From Pirellula sp. SH-Sr6A (GTDB lineage: Bacteria > Planctomycetota > Planctomycetia > Pirellulales > Pirellulaceae): DNA of 64,000 bases. The DNA lies in contig NZ_CP011272.1 in NCBI RefSeq assembly GCF_001610875.1, positions 5,499,988-5,563,987 on the forward strand. Direction: 5' to 3'. The notes under the pieces are model-generated. The model had not been told where the DNA came from, made no database searches, and was given only the letters and a program-made list of their open reading frames with translations. The number at the start of each line of letters is the position of its first letter. Positions within the stretch are counted from its first letter, which is position 1. Both the position numbers and the translations under genes were made by a program. Shown piece by piece: positions 8,801-59,749 of this stretch.

Positions 8801-9213
8801 GCGATCCACCCGATTCTACCTTCAACGAGTCGGCCTTCCTTGAAGAGCGATGCATGGGGGAGATGGACTTTGCCGTCTCGCTTTTGGATTCATTCCTCGC
8901 GACAAGCTCGGATCGATTGCGAGCTCTCATCGAACACGTGCAATCCGGAGACTTTGCATCGGCCAGTGCATTCGCTCATTCCTTAAAAGGAAGCGCTGGT
9001 GTTGTATTAGCGTCCCGGCTCGCGCAGTTAGCGGAAAAGGTCGAGATGGCCGCACAAACGGAGGATAGACTCACCATGACGGAGGGCCTCGAACAATTGG
9101 TGCGAGAAGTACATGCCTGCCATCGTTCAATTGGCGAATGCAAACATAGGATTCTTCGACAGGGGCAAGCGATTCAAGAGACTCGCCAGGGAGTTGTAAC
9201 CGATGATGAATGA
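5857..9213 (+). CDS. Hybrid sensor histidine kinase with an ethylene-receptor-like membrane domain
   Basis: About 1,118 residues: signal peptide (1-20); three-helix membrane domain (about 86-175); three PAS domains (about 195-312, 322-440, 455-572); HisKA with [10 protein letters not shown] (H600); HATPase with N-box [11 protein letters not shown] and G-boxes DTGIGIP and GTGLGLS; receiver around [12 protein letters not shown] (D890); and HPt with AHSLKGSAG (about H1040). The membrane domain matches plant ETR1: D92, Y99, I102, P103, I129, C132 and H136 correspond to ETR1 D25, Y32, I35, P36, I62, C65 and H69 with one constant offset. Those are the residues known to bind copper and ethylene. The ATG at 5857 has AAGGA 7 bases upstream. 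An in-frame GTG at 5788 after a perfect AGGAGG is an alternative start. The response regulator gene overlaps the end, giving a complete phosphorelay. Confidence 0.93.
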
Positions 9214-44723: not shown

Positions 44724-47700
44724 ATGCCTGAAAACGCGATCGACATTCGAAGCGAGCTGCTGCGTTTCCAATCCAAACTGCTCGACCTGAGCCTGCGAAA
44801 CCCTTTGCTGAACTACCGCATAGGAAAACGAAAGACGGTCTTGCTGGAAGGCCAACAGCCGGATGCCGTCTTCCATCGATTGGTCGACCAGTTCCGGCCG
44901 ATGAGGCTCACTCCCCTCACCGTCGATAGCGAACCGGAGTGCTTGCATACCCCATATCAAGCCGAGGAGTTAGACGGTTTGTTGAGAAGCGTCTCACGCG
45001 ACGCAAAGACAATTATCGAAGAAACCGGAATCAACTACCTACACCTTGCTGTCGGATTTTTGAAATGGAAAGAGGTCGCTCCAGCGAACGACGATGATCG
45101 CCTCGCTCCTATTCTTCTTATCCCCATCGAAATTCGTTCTCGCGTTCAACCCTCCGGCGAAATCGAGTACTTCGTCGCATGGGATGAAGACGACGTACAG
45201 ACCAATCCGAGCCTTCGGAAAAAACTGGAAACGGACTTTCGCCTCACGCTGCCCGAACGAGCGGAAGATGAGACTCCCTCAGCCTTCTTCGCGTCCATTC
45301 AAGCCGTATTGCAAAGCAAACCGGATTGGCAAATCGCAGAGACTATGCTCCTCGGATTCTTCTCGTTTCACAAACTCTCCATGTACGCGGACATCCATCC
45401 CGAACATTGGGAGCGGACCGATGCTCTCCGTGCGGATGCACTACCCTATCAACTCATCGTCGGATCGATCGGAAACGTCCAGCCCTCTCTGTACGTAGAA
45501 GATTATGCCATCGATGTTCACCCCTCTGCCTCCAAAATCGAACTACCTCTCGATGCCGACAGCTCTCAGCATTCAGCGATCGCCGACATCTCGGAAGGAA
45601 AAAGCTTGGTCATCGAAGGACCACCAGGGACGGGAAAATCCCAGACCATTGCCAATGCAATCGCGCACGCGATCAGCCAAGGGAAACGAATTCTGTTTGT
45701 CGCAGAAAAAATTGCGGCACTCGATGTTGTCGCCAAACGATTGGATAGCATCGGGCTTGGAAACTACTGCCTGGAAATGCACGGACATTCGGTTGCACCG
45801 AAGTACGTCTTCGAATCACTCGCTAGGCGGTTGAACTGCCCGTCCGAACCCCCTAATCCGTTATTGTCCCAAACACGCGAACAAATCCAGTGCGCGAAGC
45901 AGACCATCGAGTCGTATCTGCATTGGACAAACCAGGAGTCAGGTCCCTATCGTGAACCGCTCCATCAGCTGATGTGGCGCATGGTTCCATGGCGACAAAA
46001 AGGACTTGTTCCATTGCAAACGGCCGAATTGGATCTAAATCTTTCCCGAGACGTTCTGGGCGAGTGCAAGTCAGCTCTCAACGCGTTCGCTCGCACGGCC
46101 AATGAATTCGGGGACCCCTCTCAAAGCGAATGGTTTGGGTTCTTTCCCGAGGACTGCTCTGTATCTCGATTGAATACCGTCAAAGAATGCGTCACCCAAT
46201 TACGACTTCTCGCGCATTCGATCGAAGGAGAACGGCAATCCCTCGATTCTCTACTCGGTGCACGCGATCGATCGAATGTCTTTTTGCGAGACCCGCCCAT
46301 CGCTCGCATCCGAGAACTTCAAGCCTCCTATCGGTCAGGTTCGGGAGTCTCTTGCGAAGCTCTTCTTGACCCGGAATTGCAGTCGGTCGCTTTAGAACTG
46401 GAAGCCTGCATCGAAACAATCGATCGATGCGAGGCGAGGCTCGATCGCATTTGGCCTGCGTGGCGAGAACACTCCCGCGACCACTCGAACATCCCGAACG
46501 ACCTCGCTCTGGATCTGTTAAAGAAACTCGATCCCCTTTCACCCGTTCACACCCTGGAGGCCTTTCAAAGCTGGGTTTCGACGACTCGCTCCCTCCAAGA
46601 ACGACTTCGGCATGATGTGCACAAGATCGCTGATGCAATTCAAGAACCCTTGGAGCGGATCGACGAATCGATTCGTAAGGCCAAGATGCTGGCCTTGCTA
46701 GGTGAACCTGTCTGGAACGGACTCGAATCGATACCCGAAGAATGGTTCCTCGAATCCACAAAGAAAACCATCGAGGCGGCTCTCGATAGAAATCAACGAC
46801 TTCGATCCAGTCGACGAGAATTGGAAACGAACTTTGATCTAGAGCAGGCCCCCGGTGCTGACGAACTGAAACACTTGTTGAAGTCACTGCAACCCTACGC
46901 CAGCCGATGGTGGCGTTTCTTCGACTCCACGTATCGCAGAACCCTTCGGTCCATCCAAAGGTTTGCAACCTTTCATCGGTTCTTTGGCATCGCTCGAATC
47001 ATCCACGCATTGGAGTCCCTTCGCCTGTTTGAAGTGGAGCGAACCGAATTTTCCAATCAAAAGGAATGGAAACGATGTTTAGGACCGCTTTTCCAACAGG
47101 ACCAAACCGATTGGGAATTGGTCTCCCAAATTTGGGACCGAGTCGCTCGTTTGCAATCTTTCGGCGCCGATGCCAAACAGGCAAACCGATTTCGCTCGCT
47201 GCAAAGCAAATTGACAGCCCACCTGGATTGGGAGGCGTTTCTCCGCGCGTGGGATCAATGGACTCTCCAGTTTGATTTCCCGGTTGCCCAGCGTCTTCTC
47301 ACACCGGCGATGCCCCATAGCCAAGGGGCATGGGATGACTCCAGTCAACTTCTGGAGCACTGGGCATCGGGTATCCAGCAATTGGAGGCTTTTGCCAACC
47401 TCGCGGGAATTGGAAAGACTTCTCCCTTTTCTGAACTTGAAGAGATCCTCAGCAATCTGGCTGAACATCGCCAAGCTCACGCACGCGCGATGGTTCTTAC
47501 CGACTCGCCGGATCCTACTCGACAAAAGATTTGGGAGTACGTCCGTCAACAACGAGGCGCGATCGGAAGTGAAATCCAGTGGCTTCGGAATTTTCAGCTG
47601 CTAGAGCTGGGAACGGAAGCCATCCGCCAACTCGATCGCATGGGCGCGGAGCAGCTGTGCGAGTCCCTATGTCGCAGCGCGTTGGACGTGGAGATTGCGA

Positions 47701-49580
47701 CGAAACGGTGGGATGAGATCCGCGGTCTCATCGGAACCACCTCGGAGATGAATTCGGATTGGGCTAACTGGACAACTCCCAATACACACGGCGAAAAGAA
47801 TGAGTTCAAAGACGATCTCGTAGGGCCTATGGACCGCCTCGGTTCCCAATTTGGGCGGCTAGAGGCGTGGTTTGGTCTCTGCCGAACCATCGCCCGGTGC
47901 AAACGATGCCAATGCGAAGCCTTTGTCTGGAGGGCTTTTGAGCAAGAGCCCATTACGGAGCAACTGGGGGATGTGTTCGAACTGACTCTCCTCGACAGGA
48001 TTGCATCGGGCGCCGTTTCCAATTCGCATTGGGGAGAAACTTTTACCCGCACCGAACTAGAAGACGCGATTGCCTCCTACCAGAAGCTGGATCACGCGTT
48101 TCAGACGCTCAAGTCTCAAGAGATACAAGGGAATCTCATCCAGTGTCCCATCCCAACCGGTTCGAACCGAGGCCGGGTTGGCGAGTTCACCGAACTGGGG
48201 CTTATCAAGCATGAGGTAAACAAGAAACTGCGGCACTGCAAGATTCGCGATTTGATGAGCCGAGCGGGAAGTGCCGTGCAAGCCTTGAAGCCTTGTTTTC
48301 TCATGAGCCCACTGTCACTCGCACGCTATTTGCCCGCGGAATCGATTTCCTTCGATCTTGTCATCATGGACGAAGCGTCTCAGATCAAACCCGAAGACGC
48401 AATTGGGGCAATACTGCGTGCCAAGCAACTCGTGGTGGTAGGAGATCCTAAACAATTGCCCCCCACCCATTTTTTTGAACGCCAGATTTCTGAAGAGGAG
48501 GAAGCCGACCAAACGCAATTCGATCATGCGGAATCGATTTTAGATGTCGCCATGCGCGCCTTCCAGCCATGTCGCCGATTGCGATGGCACTATCGAAGCC
48601 ATCACGAGCAGTTAATCCGTTTTTCCAACGAGCAATTCTATGACGGAGACTTGATCGTCTTTCCCTCCCCCAAAGGGCCGGATGCTGGCTATGGAATCCG
48701 CAGCCACTTCGTCGAACAAGGGCGTTTCTCTCAAGGGATCAATCAAGTTGAAGGGGAAATGATTGCCCACGCGATTGTCCAGCACGCCTTAGATAATCCT
48801 GACGAGTCCCTCGGTGTCGCCGCATTCAATCAGTTGCAAGCGGAGTGGATCGACGACCAAGTTGCCTTGATTTGTCGCCGTGATCCTCGTGCCGCAGAAG
48901 CAGTGGCCCAGTTGAGTCAACGCCATGACGGGCTCTTTATCAAGAATCTAGAGAGCATACAGGGGGATGAGCGGGACGTGATGTTCCTGTCGTACACCTA
49001 CGGCCCGGATATCACAACGGGCAAGGTGTTTCAGCGATTCGGCCCGATCAATTTCGACGCGGGTTGGCGGCGATTGAATGTTTTGGTAACCCGAGCGAGA
49101 AAGCGGATGGAGGTGTTCTCGTCCCTTCGATTCGACCAAATTGCAGTCGGTGCGAATGCCAGCCGCGGTGTGTGCGCGTTCCGCGAATTCCTCCAGTTCA
49201 TCCAGACAGAGTGCTCGCAGGAGCGGGCGACGCCACCATCTCGATCTCCCGAGTCTCCATTGGAGGATGCCATCGCGAGCGTCGTCCGGTCGATGGGCCT
49301 GGAGCCAGTTTTTCAGGTCGGGGTCTCGGGCTGCTATCTCGATGTCGCGGTCCGGCACCCCAATTCTCCAACCGACTTTCTGATCGCAATCGAATCGGAT
49401 GGTGCCGGTTACCGGGAAGCCAAATCCGCTCGCGATCGCGACCGAATTCGCAACGAGGTTCTCGAAGCACGTGGCTGGCCGGTCCATCGCATTTGGTGCG
49501 TCGATTGGTTTCTCCATCGGTCGGCCGAAGAAGACCGCCTGCGAAAAGCGATCCACCGACTGGTGAACGCCGCTTCCTAG
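44724..49580 (+). CDS. DUF4011 helicase with a Vsr-like nuclease end, probable defence protein
   Basis: 1,618 residues. DUF4011 opens the protein (SKLLDLSLRNPLLNYRIGK). A P-loop GPPGTGKSQ starts near residue 299, in VIEGPPGTGKSQTIANAIAH, and the DEAD motif is VIMDEASQ near 1215, with QLPPTHFF just after it. The AAA_12-like end of the SF1 helicase (LNVLVTRARKRMEVF) lies near 1455. The final ~100 residues (EDAIASVVRSMGLEP, IAIESDGAGYR, RNEVLEARGWPVHRIW) look like a Vsr/MTES-type endonuclease, with the catalytic aspartate candidate in ESDGAGY. DUF4011-helicase-Vsr fusions are known among anti-phage systems (the Hhe type). No methylase is encoded. A tRNA follows directly, a common position for integrated defence genes. 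Confidence 0.85.
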   Translation: MPENAIDIRSELLRFQSKLLDLSLRNPLLNYRIGKRKTVLLEGQQPDAVFHRLVDQFRPMRLTPLTVDSEPECLHTPYQAEELDGLLRSVSRDAKTIIEETGINYLHLAVGFLKWKEVAPANDDDRLAPILLIPIEIRSRVQPSGEIEYFVAWDEDDVQTNPSLRKKLETDFRLTLPERAEDETPSAFFASIQAVLQSKPDWQIAETMLLGFFSFHKLSMYADIHPEHWERTDALRADALPYQLIVGSIGNVQPSLYVEDYAIDVHPSASKIELPLDADSSQHSAIADISEGKSLVIEGPPGTGKSQTIANAIAHAISQGKRILFVAEKIAALDVVAKRLDSIGLGNYCLEMHGHSVAPKYVFESLARRLNCPSEPPNPLLSQTREQIQCAKQTIESYLHWTNQESGPYREPLHQLMWRMVPWRQKGLVPLQTAELDLNLSRDVLGECKSALNAFARTANEFGDPSQSEWFGFFPEDCSVSRLNTVKECVTQLRLLAHSIEGERQSLDSLLGARDRSNVFLRDPPIARIRELQASYRSGSGVSCEALLDPELQSVALELEACIETIDRCEARLDRIWPAWREHSRDHSNIPNDLALDLLKKLDPLSPVHTLEAFQSWVSTTRSLQERLRHDVHKIADAIQEPLERIDESIRKAKMLALLGEPVWNGLESIPEEWFLESTKKTIEAALDRNQRLRSSRRELETNFDLEQAPGADELKHLLKSLQPYASRWWRFFDSTYRRTLRSIQRFATFHRFFGIARIIHALESLRLFEVERTEFSNQKEWKRCLGPLFQQDQTDWELVSQIWDRVARLQSFGADAKQANRFRSLQSKLTAHLDWEAFLRAWDQWTLQFDFPVAQRLLTPAMPHSQGAWDDSSQLLEHWASGIQQLEAFANLAGIGKTSPFSELEEILSNLAEHRQAHARAMVLTDSPDPTRQKIWEYVRQQRGAIGSEIQWLRNFQLLELGTEAIRQLDRMGAEQLCESLCRSALDVEIATKRWDEIRGLIGTTSEMNSDWANWTTPNTHGEKNEFKDDLVGPMDRLGSQFGRLEAWFGLCRTIARCKRCQCEAFVWRAFEQEPITEQLGDVFELTLLDRIASGAVSNSHWGETFTRTELEDAIASYQKLDHAFQTLKSQEIQGNLIQCPIPTGSNRGRVGEFTELGLIKHEVNKKLRHCKIRDLMSRAGSAVQALKPCFLMSPLSLARYLPAESISFDLVIMDEASQIKPEDAIGAILRAKQLVVVGDPKQLPPTHFFERQISEEEEADQTQFDHAESILDVAMRAFQPCRRLRWHYRSHHEQLIRFSNEQFYDGDLIVFPSPKGPDAGYGIRSHFVEQGRFSQGINQVEGEMIAHAIVQHALDNPDESLGVAAFNQLQAEWIDDQVALICRRDPRAAEAVAQLSQRHDGLFIKNLESIQGDERDVMFLSYTYGPDITTGKVFQRFGPINFDAGWRRLNVLVTRARKRMEVFSSLRFDQIAVGANASRGVCAFREFLQFIQTECSQERATPPSRSPESPLEDAIASVVRSMGLEPVFQVGVSGCYLDVAVRHPNSPTDFLIAIESDGAGYREAKSARDRDRIRNEVLEARGWPVHRIWCVDWFLHRSAEEDRLRKAIHRLVNAAS

Positions 49581-49720: not shown

Positions 49721-49726
49721 GGAAAG

Positions 49727-49798
49727 AGGCTCCGGTGGGAGTTGAACCCACGATGGCGGATTTGCAATCCGCTGCCTTAGCCACTTGGCTACGGAGCC
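49727..49798 (-). tRNA. tRNA-Cys (anticodon GCA)
   Basis: The 72-base cloverleaf folds without gaps: acceptor arm GGCTCCG with CGGAGCC, D loop GCCAAGTGGCTAAGGC, anticodon arm GCGGA-TTGCAAA-TCCGC with anticodon GCA, and T arm GTGGG-TTCAACT-CCCAC. The unpaired discriminator is T, which is the cysteine identity base. The 3' CCA is not encoded. Confidence 0.96.
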
Positions 49799-50376
49799 GA
49801 GCAATGATTTTGCAGGGTTTTCGATACTGTCGAGCGTGGCCTTTTCGAGGTCACACTCCACATCACACTCGCGACGTCTCAAAACGAGATGTTGTTGAGC
49901 CCGTGTGTTCCGTATCGACGAGGAGTGTAACCGATCAACAAACCACTAATCAACCCCAGTCCGGATTTTCCTTGGAAGCCCCAAAAAATCGGGACCTGAC
50001 TTCCAGGCATCAACGGGATTCTGAATCGCTTTCGCACGAGTCTAGAAACCGGTCTGACGCCCTCAAGGAATTGGTCGCGGCGGAGTGCTGTACTGGCATC
50101 GTATCGACACGCATATGGTTTCGCCTCCAATGAAATTGGAACACCGAATTTGCTTCCCCGCGAAGGACTGCTTTTACCATCGCGGTGCCTTCAAAAGATA
50201 AGTGCGCCAGGTCCTACTCCGCCGGACACGCTTGGTCCGGCCTTGCTGAGATTTACAACGAGGACTTCGACGACCAACGCTTCGTGGTCATCGGTGACTT
50301 GATCGACAAGTGGTTGGGGGATGCAGTCACTCAAAAGCTTCCTTCTCTATCCCAAATTGAAACGTGCGGTAGCTTA
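49799..50376 (+). other. Stretch without a supported gene
   Basis: This 578-base gap lies between tRNA-Cys and the tandem gene cassette. I see no gene with a credible start and ribosome-binding site. A 169-codon plus-strand frame (49624-50133) runs antisense through the tRNA and is not real. The only structured element is a degenerate coding fragment at 50227-50319 that is related to two copies inside the cassette. Confidence 0.6.
50227..50319 (+). pseudogene. Degenerate coding fragment, copy 1
   Basis: The plus-strand frame reads HAWSGLAEIYNEDFDDQRF and then VVIGDLIDKWLG. Two related copies lie at 51471-51587 and 53760-53856 and read EIYNEDFDYQRLVVISEL and EIYNEDLDS-stop. The frame here is open from 50185 (GTG), but no start or domain supports an intact gene. 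The source gene is not in the window and the family is not recognised. Confidence 0.5.
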
Positions 50377-51354
50377 CTATTTTCCAGAAGATTTGGAGGA
50401 TTCTTTAGCGGCTTTCTCCTGAAGCCGTTTGTCTTTTGTGTCGACAAGCGCCTCAAGACGGTCATTCAGATACTGTTCGGAGAAGTAGGATTGAGGAATC
50501 GGTTTGTTATACGATTCCCATTTGAAGGTGTACTCTTGTTTGGATCGCCCGCGAGGCTCAAAGTTCTCAATCTTTACCTTGCTTGGTACCCACCTCTCCC
50601 CTAGATTTTCAAGCTCGATATCCGTTCGGGCAGACACCCGCTCTTTGCCACCACTCCGCGGAATGATCGCCGGGAGAACTGCTTTCGTTAACCAATAATC
50701 CCTCTTCGTGTCTACGAAGTAGTCTCGACTAATGCAACGAAATATTGCGATTCCATCCTCATTCATCCGATAGTTTGTGTACTCTTCCTTCGGGTTCGAA
50801 GACGTGAACTCAACCCGGTGCTGTAAGATCTTCTGCACAGAATCTCGCGCTTGGTGCTCTGAATCCATTGCCCATCCAAGTGTTCGAAAGTCGAAGTCAA
50901 CAACACCTCGCACCCGCCCGTCATTCGAACCTATAGTGCGGATTTCACCTGTTCTTGGGTCAACCACAAGGTGTAAGTCTGGGAGGACCATTCGGATTGC
51001 AGGGTAGGCTGTGTAGCTTTTGGAATTCCGAAGGACATCTTCTTCCTCCAGCTTTGAGCCAGCCAGTACATCAACAATCTCGGTATCCATTTCCATGTAA
51101 TAGGATCCCGCCAGCTCATCACATTTTACCTTGCCCTTGGAGATTTTCAAAACTCCATACTGAGTCGGGTTTGCTGCTGCAGTTTCTGTAAAGGAATTGT
51201 CACGGAGTTCAAAATCAAATTCGTACCGAATCGGCTCCGTTCGTTCTTCGAGAACGCATAGCATGAGATCGCGAGCATTGTCTTGGGCCAGAAGCGGCAC
51301 TGAGCCAAGCAGAAAAGCCACCATCGCCGCAAGGTAGATAAGGATCGGTCTCAT
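50377..51354 (-). CDS. Secreted unknown protein A, copy 1
   Basis: 325 residues with a signal peptide (MRPILIYLAAMVAFLLGSV, cleavage near LLAQ). The rest is beta-rich, with FDFELRDNSF, an acidic-charged middle and a lysine-rich end (DKRLQEKAAKESSK). No enzymatic motif is seen, and the general build is like exported LolA-type beta folds, but this is not established. Copy 2 lies at 52663-53643. The first ~53 codons and a ~120-base stretch near the 3' end (codons 265-305) are nearly identical between copies, while the middle has diverged to roughly 60% protein identity. Confidence 0.75.
   Translation of the reverse strand: MRPILIYLAAMVAFLLGSVPLLAQDNARDLMLCVLEERTEPIRYEFDFELRDNSFTETAAANPTQYGVLKISKGKVKCDELAGSYYMEMDTEIVDVLAGSKLEEEDVLRNSKSYTAYPAIRMVLPDLHLVVDPRTGEIRTIGSNDGRVRGVVDFDFRTLGWAMDSEHQARDSVQKILQHRVEFTSSNPKEEYTNYRMNEDGIAIFRCISRDYFVDTKRDYWLTKAVLPAIIPRSGGKERVSARTDIELENLGERWVPSKVKIENFEPRGRSKQEYTFKWESYNKPIPQSYFSEQYLNDRLEALVDTKDKRLQEKAAKESSKSSGK
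50440..50559 (-). repeat. 120-base exact repeat, copy 1 (in gene A1)
   Basis: Identical base for base to 52729-52848. It codes for the conserved segment between NKPIPQSYF and YLNDRLEALV. The offset, 2,289, equals that of the other identical block. Confidence 0.9.
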
Positions 51355-51502
51355 AGATACACACTCGCTCGATTTAAGGGCTCGTTGCAGGGATAGGAGG
51401 GCATGGCGAACTGAGCCATCGCATGAAGGGCTACTAGGGGTGTCGAATTCAGGCAGTCGACGCTCACAGACATGGTTGGGCCGGCGTTGATGAAATTTAC
51501 AA
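51194..51502 (-). repeat. 309-base near-identical repeat, copy 1
   Basis: Matches 53483-53791 at 306 of 309 positions without gaps. It spans the first ~53 codons of gene A1 and 148 bases of its upstream region, including the start of the degenerate fragment. Confidence 0.9.
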
Positions 51503-51587
51503 CGAAGACTTTGATTATCAACGATTAGTGGTCATCAGTGAGTTAATCGACAAGTGGTTGGTAGAGTGCTTTGAATCAACCGAATGA
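51471..51587 (+). pseudogene. Degenerate coding fragment, copy 2
   Basis: The plus-strand frame reads HGWAGVDEIYNEDFDYQRL, then VVISELIDKWLVECFESTE and a stop at 51585. It has no start codon and follows a TAG upstream. It lies antisense between genes A1 and B1. The first third is within the 309-base repeat; the remainder differs from copy 3, which has an internal stop. Confidence 0.5.
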
Positions 51588-51614
51588 CTTGCAAAACAAT
51601 TACGTTGCCATCAA

Positions 51615-52556
51615 TCACTTTGCCTTAAATGTTTCAACAAGCTCTTCACTTAGAATCTTATTGTGGACGAAGACATCGGGATTAACACCCTTGGCAGTAA
51701 CCAGGCTTGTCTTCCAAACGTAACCAATACTAAAGTTCTCTGTAGTACGGAGATCGTTATCGCCCCAATAGTTCTCAATCCTGCACTCGACGCGGGCCGG
51801 GACAAACCCGTCATTGTAATTAGTCCACTTCGTGTTAATATCACAGCAATACCTCCGACCAATACGAACGAATCTCTTCTCATAGTCTTTTGGGAGTATG
51901 TACCGCGTCAGAACCGGCATTCCACCCTGTGTCTTGTCAAAGTAAACTTGAATATGCGCGCGGTGCTCTCCGGTGCCATATGTCCATTCCCCCCGAGTTA
52001 ATCTCCCATCGGTTTCACACCAAAGCATCTTCTTCATGTCTAGAAGTTCGGACCAAGAGTCACGTTTACCGGCGCCACCGGATGTTGTTAGTTGAGGCTC
52101 GGCGATCGCGACCATGCAAGGGTCTTCTGGAACAGGGGACCGCCCAACGGGGGAGAATTCTCCTTTTTCATTGACAATTGGGAGGTCGCCAATGGATGCC
52201 AAGGTTTTTCCCTTTAGCACAGTAAAGACGCTCCAGCCCCCTAAGGGGACAGGTTGGGAGCCGATGTAACGCATCCAATCCACTCGTTTTGAATTGGATT
52301 TTCGGTCTTCGAAAGCGACCACGTCATACTGAAGACTTTGTGATGGCTCTTGCTTGGCAATATAATTTCTTTCTCGGCAAACCTCCGCAAGGTATCCAAA
52401 TGAATTCAGCCGCTCAGCGTTAATACCAAAATCATAAATCAAAGATTCGATTTCGGACGGATCGCATGAAACGAACTTGTTTTGAGCGTTAGCGATCTGT
52501 GGCACTAGTGCTAAAAGACAAATAAATGTCGCTTTGATCAAAGTGTTTAATGCCAT
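51615..52556 (-). CDS. Secreted unknown protein B, copy 1
   Basis: 313 residues with a signal peptide (hydrophobic run, cleavage near IANAQ). After it comes a cysteine in FVSCDPSEIE, then IYDFGINAERLNSFGY, and conserved blocks GEWTYGTGEHRAHIQVYFD and GMPVLTRYILPKDYEKRF. No family is recognised. Copy 2 at 53902-54846 has the same layout and similar blocks (GEWTLGEGKYKTYVQVYFD) but only about 45% identity. A and B are similar in size and both secreted; they may be two parts of a surface or periplasmic pair. B precedes A on the minus strand in each unit. Confidence 0.75.
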   Translation of the reverse strand: MALNTLIKATFICLLALVPQIANAQNKFVSCDPSEIESLIYDFGINAERLNSFGYLAEVCRERNYIAKQEPSQSLQYDVVAFEDRKSNSKRVDWMRYIGSQPVPLGGWSVFTVLKGKTLASIGDLPIVNEKGEFSPVGRSPVPEDPCMVAIAEPQLTTSGGAGKRDSWSELLDMKKMLWCETDGRLTRGEWTYGTGEHRAHIQVYFDKTQGGMPVLTRYILPKDYEKRFVRIGRRYCCDINTKWTNYNDGFVPARVECRIENYWGDNDLRTTENFSIGYVWKTSLVTAKGVNPDVFVHNKILSEELVETFKAK

Positions 52557-52662
52557 TGTTCATGCAACCCGTGAAAAAATATGTAAGGACAAAATAGTGT
52601 GGTTATAGGGGGCGCCCACGCAGGCGGGCCGATTGGAAGCCAAACGAGAAGGGGGCCGCAAC

Positions 52663-53643
52663 TTACTTTTTTTCAGAATATTTGGAGGATTCTTTAGCGG
52701 TTTTCTCCTGAAGGCGCTTGTCTTTTGCGTCGACAAGCGCCTCAAGACGGTCATTCAGATACTGTTCGGAGAAGTAGGATTGAGGAATCGGTTTGTTATA
52801 CGATTCCCATTTGAAGGTGTACTCTTGTTTGGATCGCCCGCGAGGCTCGAAGTTTTCAATCTTTACCTTGCTTGGTACCCACCTCTCCCCCAGTTTCTCA
52901 AGTTCAATATCCGTTCGGGCTGACACCCGCTCTTTACCACCACTCCGCGGAATGATCGCTGGAATGGTTACTTTCGTGAGCCCGTAATCCCTCTTGGTGT
53001 CCACGAAATAATCCCTACCTATACAACGAAAAGAGGCAATCCCGTCGTCGTTCACCCGGTAGTTTGTGTACTCGTCCTTTGGGTCTGGGGAGCAATTCTC
53101 AATGCGGTGTTGTAATATTTGCCGCAGGGAATCTTTGGATTGGTGTTCGGAGTCCAACGCCCACCCGAGTGTTCGAAAATCAAAGTCAATCATCCCCTTC
53201 ACAGGTCGACCACGAGAACTAACCTGAGTTACCACACCTGCTCTTGGCTCAACCATGAACTGCATATCAGGTAGGATCAATCTCATGGCAGGAAACTCGG
53301 AATAATATTTGGCTTTTTCCGTGATGGCTTCCTCTTCTGACTTAGTCTCGGCTAGCACATCAACTATCTCCGTTTCCATCTCTACGTAGTAAAAGCCAGC
53401 TAGCTCATCCGACTTCAATTTCCCTTTCGTCACCTTTAGCATCCCGTATTCGGTAGGCTTCTCCGAAGCAACCGCAGTAAACGAATTGTCACGGAGTTCA
53501 AAATCAAATTCGTACCGAATCGGCTCCGTTCGTTCTTCGAGAACGCATAGCATGAGATCGCGAGCATTGTCTTGGGCCAGAAGCGGCACTGAGCCAAGCT
53601 GAAAAGCAACCATCGCCGCAAGGTAGATAAGGATCGGTCTCAT
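52663..53643 (-). CDS. Secreted unknown protein A, copy 2
   Basis: 326 residues. Same signal peptide as copy 1 except two residues, same N-terminal 50 residues and same C-terminal 100 residues, with a diverged middle (for example VSSRGRPVKGMIDFDFRTLG where copy 1 has IGSNDGRVRGVVDFDFRTLG). Copy 1 and copy 2 have the same spacing of every block, so no net insertion or deletion occurred between them. Both are probably expressed, since frames are intact. Function unknown. Confidence 0.75.
   Translation of the reverse strand: MRPILIYLAAMVAFQLGSVPLLAQDNARDLMLCVLEERTEPIRYEFDFELRDNSFTAVASEKPTEYGMLKVTKGKLKSDELAGFYYVEMETEIVDVLAETKSEEEAITEKAKYYSEFPAMRLILPDMQFMVEPRAGVVTQVSSRGRPVKGMIDFDFRTLGWALDSEHQSKDSLRQILQHRIENCSPDPKDEYTNYRVNDDGIASFRCIGRDYFVDTKRDYGLTKVTIPAIIPRSGGKERVSARTDIELEKLGERWVPSKVKIENFEPRGRSKQEYTFKWESYNKPIPQSYFSEQYLNDRLEALVDAKDKRLQEKTAKESSKYSEKK
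52729..52848 (-). repeat. 120-base exact repeat, copy 2 (in gene A2)
   Basis: Base-for-base copy of 50440-50559. Confidence 0.9.
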
Positions 53644-53791
53644 AGATACACACTCGCTCGATTTAAGGGCTCGTTGCAGGGATAGGAGGGCATGGCGAAC
53701 TGAGCCATCGCATGAAGGGCTACTAGGGGTGTCGAATTCAGGCAGTCGACACTCACAGACATGGTTGGGCCGGCGTTGATGAAATTTACAA
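53483..53791 (-). repeat. 309-base near-identical repeat, copy 2
   Basis: Matches 51194-51502 with three mismatches; covers the A2 signal peptide region and its upstream sequence. Confidence 0.9.
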
Positions 53792-53856
53792 TGAGGACCT
53801 CGACAGCTAGCGGTTGGTAGTCGCCGGTGAACCGATCTACAAGTGGATTGGGGATA
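53760..53856 (+). pseudogene. Degenerate coding fragment, copy 3
   Basis: The plus-strand frame reads HGWAGVDEIYNEDLDS, then a TAG, then RLVVAGEPIYKWIGD. The internal stop shows it is not a functional gene. It is the 2,289-base partner of copy 2. Confidence 0.5.
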
Positions 53857-53901
53857 GATGCAAGCAACGCAAACTCATTGCGAAACTCACCCTGCAATCA
53901 C

Positions 53902-54846
53902 TTAAGGATCAAACATGCCTGACAACTCCTCACTCGGAATCTTGGCATGTTCAAACACGGTTGGATCGACACCCTTTTCGGTAACTAGCTTAGATTTCCA
54001 AGTGTACTCCACACTGTAATCCATAGTTGATCTGAACACGCCCTTGGTAGAGTAGTTTTCAATCGCTGTCTCTACTAAAAGGGGCATATAGATGTCACCC
54101 TCTTTGAGCCACTTCGTTTTGATTTCGCAACTATATCTTTTCCCAAACTTCGCGAATCGTTTCTCGTAGTCCGTTGGGATGACAAATCGAGTTAAAACGG
54201 GCATTCCATCTTTGGCACTATCAAAATAGACTTGAACGTAAGTCTTGTACTTTCCTTCACCGAGGGTCCATTCCCCCCTTACTAGTCGACCGTTTGATTC
54301 GCACCAGAGTAGCTTGTCCATCGACAACAAATCTGCCCAATAACCAGGGCGCCCCGCTTTTCCCCTCTCCACAAGACGCGGTTCGGAGATAGGGGCCATC
54401 CACGGATCCTCGGCAATCGGCGCAAGCCCAATACTCGGAACTGATTTGTTGTATATGGTCCGGTCGCCCATCGATACATTGAACTTCCCCTTGTGGGTCG
54501 TTGCCACAACCCAATAAGACGTATCCGTTGGATTGGGCAATACAGTTAAAACGTCTTGGCGTTTCGATTTTGACTTTCGGTCTTCAAACCACAGAACATC
54601 CCATGTCGTAGTTCCAGACTCTCTCGGGTCTGTAAAACCATGCTGCTCAAGCTTTACATCGGCTTTGTATCCGAAGTGATGTTTTCGCTCGGCATTGATG
54701 CCAAAATCCATGACCAACGTCTCGATCTCAGATTTATCACAAGGGGAAAAGGCATTTTGACCATTCGATTCCTCCAAGAGAATACAAACAGTTGCTAATG
54801 CCATGGACAGCGTACGGGCAATGGCGGATCTGATCTTGTCTAACAT
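53902..54846 (-). CDS. Secreted unknown protein B, copy 2
   Basis: 314 residues with a signal peptide (cleavage near residue 28). Like copy 1, it has a cysteine at the mature start in FSPCDKSEIETL, then MDFGINAERKHHFGY, and the same order of conserved blocks (PVLTRFVIPTDYEKRF, SVEYTWKSKLV, PSEELSGMF at the end). The identity to copy 1 is far lower than between the A copies, so the two units are not one simple recent duplication. No catalytic motif. The first gene of the run on the minus strand. Confidence 0.75.
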   Translation of the reverse strand: MLDKIRSAIARTLSMALATVCILLEESNGQNAFSPCDKSEIETLVMDFGINAERKHHFGYKADVKLEQHGFTDPRESGTTTWDVLWFEDRKSKSKRQDVLTVLPNPTDTSYWVVATTHKGKFNVSMGDRTIYNKSVPSIGLAPIAEDPWMAPISEPRLVERGKAGRPGYWADLLSMDKLLWCESNGRLVRGEWTLGEGKYKTYVQVYFDSAKDGMPVLTRFVIPTDYEKRFAKFGKRYSCEIKTKWLKEGDIYMPLLVETAIENYSTKGVFRSTMDYSVEYTWKSKLVTEKGVDPTVFEHAKIPSEELSGMFDP

Positions 54847-54962
54847 CGTCTAAACCCTTGCTTGATGGGACTTTCGACAAAAGCCTAACTAGCGGTCAAT
54901 CGATACGCTTGGTTCCGATCATTTCCGAGTTGTACTTCCTCCAAAAATCGTTCGATAAAACC

Positions 54963-55187
54963 TTAGCGGTAATCCTGTTCCGTTGTATTCCGTCGTTCAC
55001 TTGCATCCTGCTTGATGACGAATCCCGCTGGAAGACGTTCTGATGGGATAACTTCCTCGAACATTGATCCGACTTGGCATTTCCCAAGATCAACAGCCTG
55101 ATCGGGCATCTCTCCGAGGAGACAAAGCGTCTGAAATGGTAAACCAATAACAAACGAAAAGAGAAGACTCAGGAGGCGCATGGGCAT
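54963..55187 (-). CDS. Possible small secreted protein, 74 residues
   Basis: From the ATG at 55187 (AAAGGG lies just upstream) the frame encodes a signal-like N-terminus (MPMRLLSLLFSFVIGLPF) and a short hydrophilic mature part that contains DLGKCQVGSMFEEVIPSERL. It lies upstream of protein B copy 2 on the same strand, 116 bases away. Frame length and signal peptide support it moderately; no homologue is known to me. Confidence 0.4.
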   Translation of the reverse strand: MPMRLLSLLFSFVIGLPFQTLCLLGEMPDQAVDLGKCQVGSMFEEVIPSERLPAGFVIKQDASERRNTTEQDYR

Positions 55188-55335
55188 TGGACCCTTTGGG
55201 AAAAGGTGACGCGATGGAAGAAGTGCGTCGTGAAACCTGACGCTCAAATTGTATCGAATCGATATTGGACGCTGCGAACAATGACGAGAATATCCGAAAA
55301 AATCTGACTCGTCTTTCGCCGCCCGAAGATGCGGT

Positions 55336-56256
55336 TCAATCCAACCGCGAGGCTTCCCGGTCAGGAAGGGGAATGTTGCGATAAGGCTCGATGTGGATGA
55401 AGGCGTCAGCGATGCGCATCGATGAGTTCTTCAGCCTGCTTCTTACTTTGCCACCGATGTCATGTCCTTGCTGAACCGTCGCATCGCCATCCACTTCAAC
55501 ATGGATCTCGACAAAATAGGTTGTTCCGCTCTTTCGAATCCGACACTTCTCGACATCGAGTACTCCCGCAACTTCGCGCGCTAGCTGCCGAATTTGATCT
55601 TCGAAGTGTTTGGGGGGAGCTGCATCGAGTAGTTCGCGAACCGCGATTGTCAGCAGCCTTATACCGCTATAGCAGATAACAATGCATGCAACCAAGGCGG
55701 CCCAATCGTCTGCCGGTTCGTAGCCTGGCCCGCCGATCAAACCGATACTGATACCGATGAATGCCGAAAGCGAAGTCAACGCGTCGGAGCGATGGTGCCA
55801 CGCGTCCGCCTGCAACGCGGAACTATCGACCTCGGTTCCAAGATTTCCAACCCACCGTGCAAGGGATTCCTTGACCGCCACAACGAGCAAGAGCACAACG
55901 AGTGTCGACCAGTGGGGTAAGTGATGTGGCGTCCATATCTCACGAATACTCTGAAAGGCGATCGCCGCAGCAGCTCCCAGCAATGCAATCGCCGCAATGA
56001 TTCCTGCCAGCGATTCCGCCTTCCCATACCCATAAGGATGTTTTTCATTTGCTGGAGTGATCGAAACCCGCAGACCACCCCAAACAACTAGCGACGTGAC
56101 AATATCCGCCGTCGATTCGATTCCGTCGGCAATCAACGCATACGAATTCCCGAACACCCCTGCGACGATCTTGAGCGAAGCCAACGCTGCATTGACCGCC
56201 ATGCCAAGAAGTGGCACGGAGGTCAAGTTGGTCGAGTTCCTGTCCGGTGGATTCAT
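55336..56256 (-). CDS. Cation diffusion facilitator (zinc/iron/manganese efflux)
   Basis: About 306 residues from the ATG at 56256 (AGGA 5 bases upstream); the open frame goes back to 56370, but those residues do not belong to the family. Six membrane helices and a cytoplasmic C-terminal domain (VEIHVEVDGDATVQQGHD) identify a CDF exporter. The second metal-site helix reads DAWHHRSDALTS (the H-x3-D pair). The first site is in IADGIESTAD, where a glutamate stands where most CDF members have His or Asp. It exchanges divalent metal for protons across the inner membrane. It lies 117 bases downstream of the beta-propeller gene on the same strand. Confidence 0.88.
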   Translation of the reverse strand: MNPPDRNSTNLTSVPLLGMAVNAALASLKIVAGVFGNSYALIADGIESTADIVTSLVVWGGLRVSITPANEKHPYGYGKAESLAGIIAAIALLGAAAAIAFQSIREIWTPHHLPHWSTLVVLLLVVAVKESLARWVGNLGTEVDSSALQADAWHHRSDALTSLSAFIGISIGLIGGPGYEPADDWAALVACIVICYSGIRLLTIAVRELLDAAPPKHFEDQIRQLAREVAGVLDVEKCRIRKSGTTYFVEIHVEVDGDATVQQGHDIGGKVRSRLKNSSMRIADAFIHIEPYRNIPLPDREASRLD

Positions 56257-58891: not shown

Positions 58892-59749
58892 TTACGAGGG
58901 CCGTCGACTGAGGGTGGGAATCCAGCAAGAAACTTGTCGGCGATAAACCTCGTAGGGTTCCCCAAAACGCAGCGCCAGATCGCGTTCTTCGGATGGTCGC
59001 ACTACGACATGCCAAACCAAAGCCCCAAGGACGGAGTAGATCAAAATTGGCACCGATTGAAAGATAACGGAAAGTGCCATCCCTTGTCCAATTCCCGCAA
59101 TGGCCATGGGATTGCGAACGTATTGGTAGGGGCCTGAAACAACCAAGTTATTGGTTTGATCAAGTGGGAGTGGAGTCCCGTTTCCGTCTCGAACCATGAA
59201 AAACGCGCTGGTTAAACCCAGAACGCTAAAGCTGCCAAAGAGAAATAGACCGACGCCCAGCGATGGCCCCATGCTCGGGTGCATTAAAGCGTCAAATGCG
59301 TCCAGAATTACATACGGAATGAGCACCAATGCCAGAATCCAGATGCAAACAACCTGGATGAGTGTCTTGATTACATTCCATGTCATGGTGGTTGAGCAGA
59401 CACGGAAGAAGGAAGCATTGAAGGTGAGAAACGAATTGTACGCAAGGCCGATTAGCATCAGTCCGGTCGGCAGGAAACCGCTGGCAGTCAGAATTGTGGC
59501 GTTCAAACAGTAGAGTGTTGCATAGGCAAATGCTCCCAAAATCACATGTTCGATTGAAGTGGTCTGGATGTGAGCGCGAATTGCCGATAGGCCGGCGATC
59601 AAAAGGAGATCGGGGATCAGGAATGCCCAAAACGCAGAGGGCGGTATCTCTTCAAACTGAAAAGCAGAAAAGAAGACTTGGTCGGAAGCGAGTCCGAGCC
59701 ACCAGAGGCTAACCAATACAGATTGCAGTAGGTAAGCGGTCTCTTTCAT
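58892..59749 (-). CDS. Isoprenylcysteine carboxyl methyltransferase-like membrane protein
   Basis: 285 residues with about eight membrane helices. The last third has the ICMT/PEMT signature: LVVSGPYQYVRNPM, a following glycine-rich helix, and EERDLALRFGEPYEVYRRQV near the C-terminus, which together form the AdoMet and substrate site. Bacterial members methylate lipids or membrane compounds; the acceptor is unknown. The N-terminal helices are unlike standard ICMT and may be a separate module. It may once have been followed by the transposase remnant on the same strand side. Confidence 0.8.
   Translation of the reverse strand: MKETAYLLQSVLVSLWWLGLASDQVFFSAFQFEEIPPSAFWAFLIPDLLLIAGLSAIRAHIQTTSIEHVILGAFAYATLYCLNATILTASGFLPTGLMLIGLAYNSFLTFNASFFRVCSTTMTWNVIKTLIQVVCIWILALVLIPYVILDAFDALMHPSMGPSLGVGLFLFGSFSVLGLTSAFFMVRDGNGTPLPLDQTNNLVVSGPYQYVRNPMAIAGIGQGMALSVIFQSVPILIYSVLGALVWHVVVRPSEERDLALRFGEPYEVYRRQVSCWIPTLSRRPS

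What the first reader, a model, noticed from the sequence alone, without database searches (positions are those of the whole stretch)
50377..54846. Tandem two-gene cassette with mosaic identity
Genes A-B are duplicated with a period of 2,289 bp. The A copies share a 120-base block identical at every position and a 309-base block (99%), both at the same offset, yet the middle of A has diverged to roughly 60% protein identity and the B copies to about 45%. This looks like gene conversion between ends with a diversifying middle, or recombination that swaps a variable segment in a secreted protein.
Basis: seen in the sequence. Interest (0 to 1): 0.75.

Follow-up and report, generated by a model that had tools for sequence, protein, structure and literature searches.

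The report
Old gene pair with recopied ends
Two neighbouring copies of an old two-gene unit in a bacterium have drifted far apart, except that the start and the end of one gene look recently copied from one unit to the other; this is a clean example of gene conversion, a known process, in a little-known family of secreted proteins.

Summary
Two B-A units lie head to tail on the minus strand, period 2,289 bases. Tract 1 (309 bases, 3 differences) spans 148 bases upstream of A and codons 1 to about 54. Tract 2 (280 bases, 13 differences) spans codons 229-321 and contains the 120 identical bases. Between them, residues 56-228 are 60% identical; B is 47%.

Silent sites show the history. Synonymous divergence is saturated in the middle and in B (pS 0.86 each), 0.05 in tract 1 and 0.00-0.30 within tract 2: an old duplication whose ends were copied recently, tract 2 perhaps more than once. 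A metagenome protein, P0002, is 97% identical to A1 in the middle and 74% in the tail. Sites separating A1, A2 and P0002 give 63:0 for A1=P0002 in the middle and 1:21 in the tail. B trees put the duplication before the split from a relative. A topology test on the tail alone does not decide.

The 'diversifying middle' is not supported: pN/pS is at most about 0.25, so it is the unconverted part under purifying selection. No further gene copies were found in the genome. A is probably a periplasmic LolA-like lipid-binding protein (weak evidence). Known process, new example.

The parts
50377..51354 (-). A1, 325 aa, apparent signal peptide, weakly LolA-like (copy 1)
   Evidence: ORF; PF17131 LolA_like E 3.5e-4, below its cut-off
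51615..52556 (-). B1, 313 aa, apparent signal peptide, no Pfam or NCBIfam match (copy 1)
52663..53643 (-). A2, 326 aa, 77% identical to A1 overall (copy 2)
53902..54846 (-). B2, 314 aa, 47% identical to B1 (copy 2)
51194..51502 (-). Tract 1 in copy 1: 148 bases upstream of A1 plus codons 1 to 54 (to its second base); 3 differences in 309 to copy 2
53483..53791 (-). Tract 1 in copy 2
50391..50670 (-). Tract 2 in copy 1: codons 229-321, 13 differences in 280; core 50440-50559 identical
52680..52959 (-). Tract 2 in copy 2; core 52729-52848 identical
50671..51193 (-). Unconverted middle of A1 (about codons 55-228), pS 0.86, pN 0.217 to A2; 167/173 protein identity to P0002
52960..53482 (-). Unconverted middle of A2
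50225..50317 (-). 93-base remnant downstream of A1, 83% identical to the B1-A1 spacer and 75% to the B2-A2 spacer: possible relic of a third unit

Best explanation
An old tandem duplication made two B-A units that have diverged under purifying selection until silent sites were saturated. More recently, homologous recombination between the two units copied two short stretches (about 310 and 280 bases) from one A gene and its upstream region to the other (ectopic gene conversion), leaving the middle of A and all of B untouched. Tract 2 carries silent differences at its edges and none in its core, which suggests more than one round. Copy 1 is the likelier recipient (A2 to A1). Shown: saturated middle, near-identical silent and non-coding ends, coinciding switch in P0002, old B duplication. 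Inferred: non-reciprocal transfer, its direction, its mechanism by homologous recombination, and the protein's role as a periplasmic LolA-like lipid- or lipoprotein-binding protein.
For: Nei-Gojobori by block, A1 vs A2: codons 1-54 pS 0.05, 55-228 pS 0.86 / pN 0.217, 229-265 pS 0.30, 266-305 pS 0.00, 306-325 pS 0.16. Upstream non-coding: 1 difference in 148 bases, then 23 in the next 59: selection on the protein cannot give this. A1 vs P0002: 6/173 differences in the middle (residues 56-228), 25/97 in the tail (229-325) (Fisher p 8e-8). Informative sites among A1/A2/P0002, A1=P0002 versus A1=A2: head 0:2, middle 63:0, tail 1:21 (middle versus tail p 5e-19; 0 of 100,000 permutations reached the observed maximum descent). 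Likelihood of the tail: -546.1 free, -639.7 with the scaled branch lengths of the middle. B1+P0007 versus B2+P0006 preferred, alternatives rejected (AU p 8e-6 and 6e-4), so the duplication predates at least the B2/P0006 split. Only two A and two B genes found in the genome.
Against: For the tail alone an AU test of the three topologies does not discriminate (p 0.29, 0.71, 0.29): the quartet is nearly a star there, and the case rests on branch lengths and silent sites. The head (25 residues) favours A1+A2 by AU (others p 0.04) but not by the KH or SH test. P0002's tail is unusually far from P0004 (57/97, against 66/97 for A1 and 68/97 for A2), so P0002 may itself have a replaced tail, and the direction is uncertain. 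P0002 starts at residue 31, and its DNA and neighbours could not be read. No reads were available.
Confidence: 0.82

Rival explanations
1. Middle import: A1 was once fully homogenised with A2, and its middle (about codons 55-228) was then replaced by DNA from a P0002-like relative through homologous recombination; this is the reader's 'swap of a variable segment'.
For: It produces the same switch points in the A1/A2/P0002 triplet. P0002's neighbours are unknown, so its locus may not be the ortholog of this one.
Against: B1 and B2 are as saturated as the middle (pS 0.86) and separated before the B2/P0006 split, so the unit is an old duplicate; the import model needs a full homogenisation of A plus an import. 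GC3 gives no clear sign of foreign origin (A1 middle 0.494, its ends 0.537 and 0.526, A2 middle 0.534).
Confidence: 0.12
2. Protein constraint: both ends of A are very conserved for function and no recombination happened.
For: The first 55 residues are also well conserved in P0004 (48/55), and the topology test of the tail alone does not exclude it.
Against: Identity extends to silent sites and 148 non-coding bases; P0002 and P0004 differ from A1 in 25/97 and 31/97 tail residues.
Confidence: 0.02
3. Assembly or consensus error that copied reads of one unit into the other.
For: Near-identical 300-base stretches are where such errors occur; no reads could be checked.
Against: The tracts keep 3 and 13 differences, 10 of the 13 silent (codons 229-321); the contig is a single 6.53-Mb piece.
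Confidence: 0.04

Closest known systems
mtrA-1/mtrA-2 of methanogens (PMC4632066; abstract, opening and two sections read)
   Same: Two old paralogs in one operon in which one part is homogenised by gene conversion while another part stays distinct; paralogs closer than orthologs in that part
   Different: There the homogenised part is a whole domain and the pattern recurs across many species; here only the two ends of A, with an unconverted middle, seen in one genome
Recurrent concerted evolution of 26 prokaryotic genes, such as tuf and amoA/B/C (PMC6053082; abstract and one results section read)
   Same: Paralogs in one genome kept alike by conversion
   Different: Those are alike over nearly the full length, in at least five species, and mostly of known function; here partial, one genome, function unknown
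DBLMSP/DBLMSP2 of Plasmodium falciparum (PMC10919680; abstract and outline read)
   Same: Conversion between two paralogs confined to part of the gene
   Different: There conversion shares diverged lineages of a surface domain across a population; here no population data and no sign of diversifying selection
LolA/LolB-like fold family (PF17131 and relatives)
   Different: PF17131 score 20.7 against a cut-off of 30, over residues 247-297 only; low-confidence model

Membership tests
Ectopic gene conversion / concerted evolution of paralogs | Duplication clearly older than the similarity of the shared tracts | tested here: met
   pS 0.86 in middle and B versus 0.00-0.30 in tracts; B tree
Ectopic gene conversion / concerted evolution of paralogs | Bounded tracts that include silent and non-coding sites | tested here: met
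   1 of 148 non-coding bases differs, then 23 of the next 59; borders near codon 54 and at codon 228/229, the latter less sharp in silent sites
Ectopic gene conversion / concerted evolution of paralogs | Paralogs closer to each other than to the ortholog inside the tract | tested here: met
   Tail: A1-A2 92/97, A1-P0002 72/97; middle 104/173 versus 167/173; protein level only, and a topology test of the tail alone is inconclusive
Ectopic gene conversion / concerted evolution of paralogs | Non-reciprocal transfer, recurring in other species | not testable with these tools
   No DNA of a relative with both copies was found: family-wide search with the A profile 4 of 241 genomes, own included, the other three with one distant match each
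Antigenic-variation cassette system with silent donor copies | Further or silent donor copies in the genome | tested here: not met
   Two A and two B genes found, all open; only a 93-base spacer piece besides
Antigenic-variation cassette system with silent donor copies | Diversifying selection in the variable segment | tested here: not met
   pN/pS at most about 0.25 between copies, averaged over the segment; 167/173 protein identity to P0002
LolA_like (PF17131) | Score above the curated cut-off | tested here: not met
   20.7 and 20.5 bits for A1 and A2, 24.2 for P0004, cut-off 30; 4 of 7 members match at E up to 1
LolA_like (PF17131) | LolA half-barrel fold | tested here: inconclusive

The most novel reading that the evidence does not exclude
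The two A genes form a constant-variable-constant pair: recurrent conversion keeps the upstream region, signal peptide and C-terminal part alike, so that both products work with the same partners, while selection against converting the middle preserves two different ligand-binding faces. If so, the borders near codons 54 and 228/229 mark functional modules of a LolA-like carrier.
Probability: 0.15. Interest if true: 0.5.

Novelty: new member of a known kind. Interest (0 to 1): 0.33.

Why it matters
It is a clear case, dated by silent sites, of partial gene conversion in a bacterial tandem pair. Such mosaics mislead gene trees and can pass for hypervariable regions. In a family of apparently secreted proteins with no assigned function, the conversion borders offer a testable guess at which parts are shared and which are copy-specific.

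Tried and rejected
Close relatives at DNA level: genome-contig scans with A1 and with the B alignment and a viral-contig scan with the A alignment gave no relative; whole-genome searches gave only distant matches: 3 of 60 genomes for A and 3 of 60 for B, own included in each, 4 of 241 for the A profile, own included. So P0002, P0004, P0006 and P0007 could be used only as proteins.

Island at the tRNA-Cys (49726-49798)? I fetched stretches around the cation-efflux homolog from 6 of the 14 other genomes with a match and around the tRNA-Cys from 6 of 23 (one genome is in both sets). With 18 window ORFs as queries (E up to 1e-8) none of the 12 held A or B, and none held both anchors. One shows some linkage: in G023 a homolog of the gene at 58892-59749 (76% over residues 1-279) lies about 9 kb from the tRNA-Cys, in the opposite relative orientation, and of 34 window ORFs no other has a match in the 26.4 kb read there. 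So order is largely not conserved and no empty site could be defined.

A and B as distant homologs of each other: not supported (profile comparison probability 1.3%). B structure: pLDDT 39, not used. Solved-structure sequences: none for the A profile up to E 1, one weak hit for B (E 0.031). PADLOC and PHROGs: one weak match each (E 0.033 and 0.081), not used. NCBIfam: none of 9 proteins. Spacer remnant as a repeat: in 59 other genomes only 25-39-base matches in 5; in the own genome that search found the remnant and the B1-A1 spacer but missed the 75% B2-A2 spacer, so equally diverged copies elsewhere could have been missed too. Rfam: only the tRNA reached its threshold.

The AU topology test on the tail was expected to support A1+A2 and did not decide. 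In B, one 40-column block (281-320) has B1 closer to B2 (22/40) than to P0007 (18/40), but nothing like tract identity.

Full report
What is there. The window is 64 kb of a single 6,534,136-base contig. On the minus strand lie B2 (53902-54846), A2 (52663-53643), B1 (51615-52556) and A1 (50377-51354). All four begin with what looks like a signal peptide (read from the sequence; no predictor was run). The period is 2,289 bases, with no gap in the alignment through A.

The mosaic. In 50-column blocks the two units are 36-66% identical over B and 50-76% over the middle of A, but 96-100% in the six blocks of tract 1 and 84-100% in those of tract 2. Tract 1 covers 51194-51502 / 53483-53791: 309 bases, 3 differences, made of 148 non-coding bases upstream of A and codons 1 to 54 (to its second base). 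Tract 2 covers 50391-50670 / 52680-52959: 280 bases, 13 differences, codons 229-321, including 120 identical bases. A codon shuffle never reached a 120-base run in 20,000 trials; the longest was 68.

Age of the parts. Counting by Nei and Gojobori, synonymous divergence pS is 0.05 for codons 1-54, 0.86 for 55-228, 0.30 for 229-265, 0.00 for 266-305 and 0.16 for 306-325; pS for B is 0.86. In the 148 non-coding bases of tract 1 one differs; in the next 59 bases 23 differ. Silent saturation means an old duplication; near-zero silent divergence in the tracts means recent copying. The contrast inside tract 2 suggests two or more events of different age, though patchy repair in a single event could also do this. 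In the middle pN is 0.217, so pN/pS is at most about 0.25, and true dN/dS is lower because pS is saturated: the middle as a whole is constrained, not diversifying. Site-wise tests were not run.

An outside witness. P0002, a protein from a JGI metagenome cluster (3 member sequences, 3 contigs), is 167/173 identical to A1 in the middle (residues 56-228) but 72/97 in the tail (229-325), where A1 and A2 are 92/97 identical. Sites that separate the three sequences read 0:2, 63:0 and 1:21 for A1=P0002 against A1=A2 in head (residues 31-55), middle and tail (Fisher, middle versus tail, p 5e-19; 0 of 100,000 permutations as extreme). The switches fall between residues 43 and 57 and between 227 and 230, at the borders of the tracts. 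Fitting the tail with the scaled branch lengths of the middle costs 93.6 log units. The AU topology test for the tail alone does not discriminate (p 0.29, 0.71, 0.29): A1 and A2 sit near the centre of a star, with P0002 and P0004 on long branches. For the 25 head residues AU favours A1+A2 (others p 0.04), KH and SH do not exclude the others.

Direction. If P0002 keeps the original A1 tail, A1 received the A2 tail in one step, which explains why the borders coincide. Against this, P0002's tail is the one that is unusually far from P0004 (57/97, against 66/97 for A1 and 68/97 for A2). I therefore favour A2 to A1 without claiming it. Import of the A1 middle from a P0002-like donor would give the same borders and is kept as the main rival.

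Old duplication, seen from B. B1 groups with P0007 and B2 with P0006; the two other topologies are rejected (AU p 8e-6 and 6e-4). No stretch of B has tract-like identity: at most 33 of 50 in DNA blocks and 22 of 40 in protein blocks. This argues against a recent duplication whose middle was swapped.

Copies and distribution. Searches of the own genome found two A and two B genes (E up to 10). In relatives A is found in 3 of 60 genomes and B in 3 of 60, own included; with the A profile in 4 of 241 of the family, own included. Downstream of A1 lies a 93-base piece similar to the B-A spacer (50225-50317; 83% and 75% identical), probably the relic of a third unit. A search of the own genome showed no copy elsewhere, but it also missed the 75% copy, so this is not a full exclusion.

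Known or new. Partial conversion between old paralogs is known: mtrA-1/mtrA-2 share a homogenised domain and keep different membrane parts (PMC4632066; abstract, opening and two sections read), and a survey lists 26 recurrently converted prokaryotic genes (PMC6053082; abstract and one section read). A Plasmodium pair shows conversion confined to one domain (PMC10919680; abstract read). Paper searches for Pirellula with SH-Sr6A (5 papers, all listed, none with either term in title or abstract), planctomycetes with gene conversion (21, 10 listed), LolA-like with planctomycetes (0) and two on gene conversion in tandem paralogs (44, 15 listed; 29, 10 listed) showed, by the titles and abstract starts listed, nothing on this locus. 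So: new example, known kind.

Noticed in passing
50225-50317: 93-base spacer-like piece just downstream of A1, closer to the B1-A1 spacer (83%) than to the B2-A2 spacer (75%): possible relic of a third unit.
   Followed up: partly
50000-55400: The A-B region has about 47-50% G+C against 50-57% in the flanks shown, and lies next to a tRNA-Cys gene (49726-49798).
   Followed up: partly
L078 (G023:C94:31000-44383), 1236-1282 and 9085-9157: A complete tRNA-Cys and, 7.8 kb away in the same orientation, a second exact copy of its last 47 bases, as an integrated element at the tRNA 3' end would leave.
   Followed up: partly
L004:299-1341 and L009:43-1214: In two relatives the A-like gene (L004) and the B-like gene (L009) stand at the same place, behind a gene of 169 or 214 codons and a cysteine-rich protein of 178 or 175 residues with an apparent signal peptide, although A and B show no sequence similarity.
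   Followed up: no
44724-49580 (+): 1,618-residue protein with DUF4011, AAA helicase-type domains in two places and a C-terminal MTES_1575 nuclease-like domain.
   Followed up: no
P0002 (metagenome protein): Its tail is less like P0004 (57/97) than those of A1 and A2 are, so it may carry its own replaced tail.
   Followed up: partly
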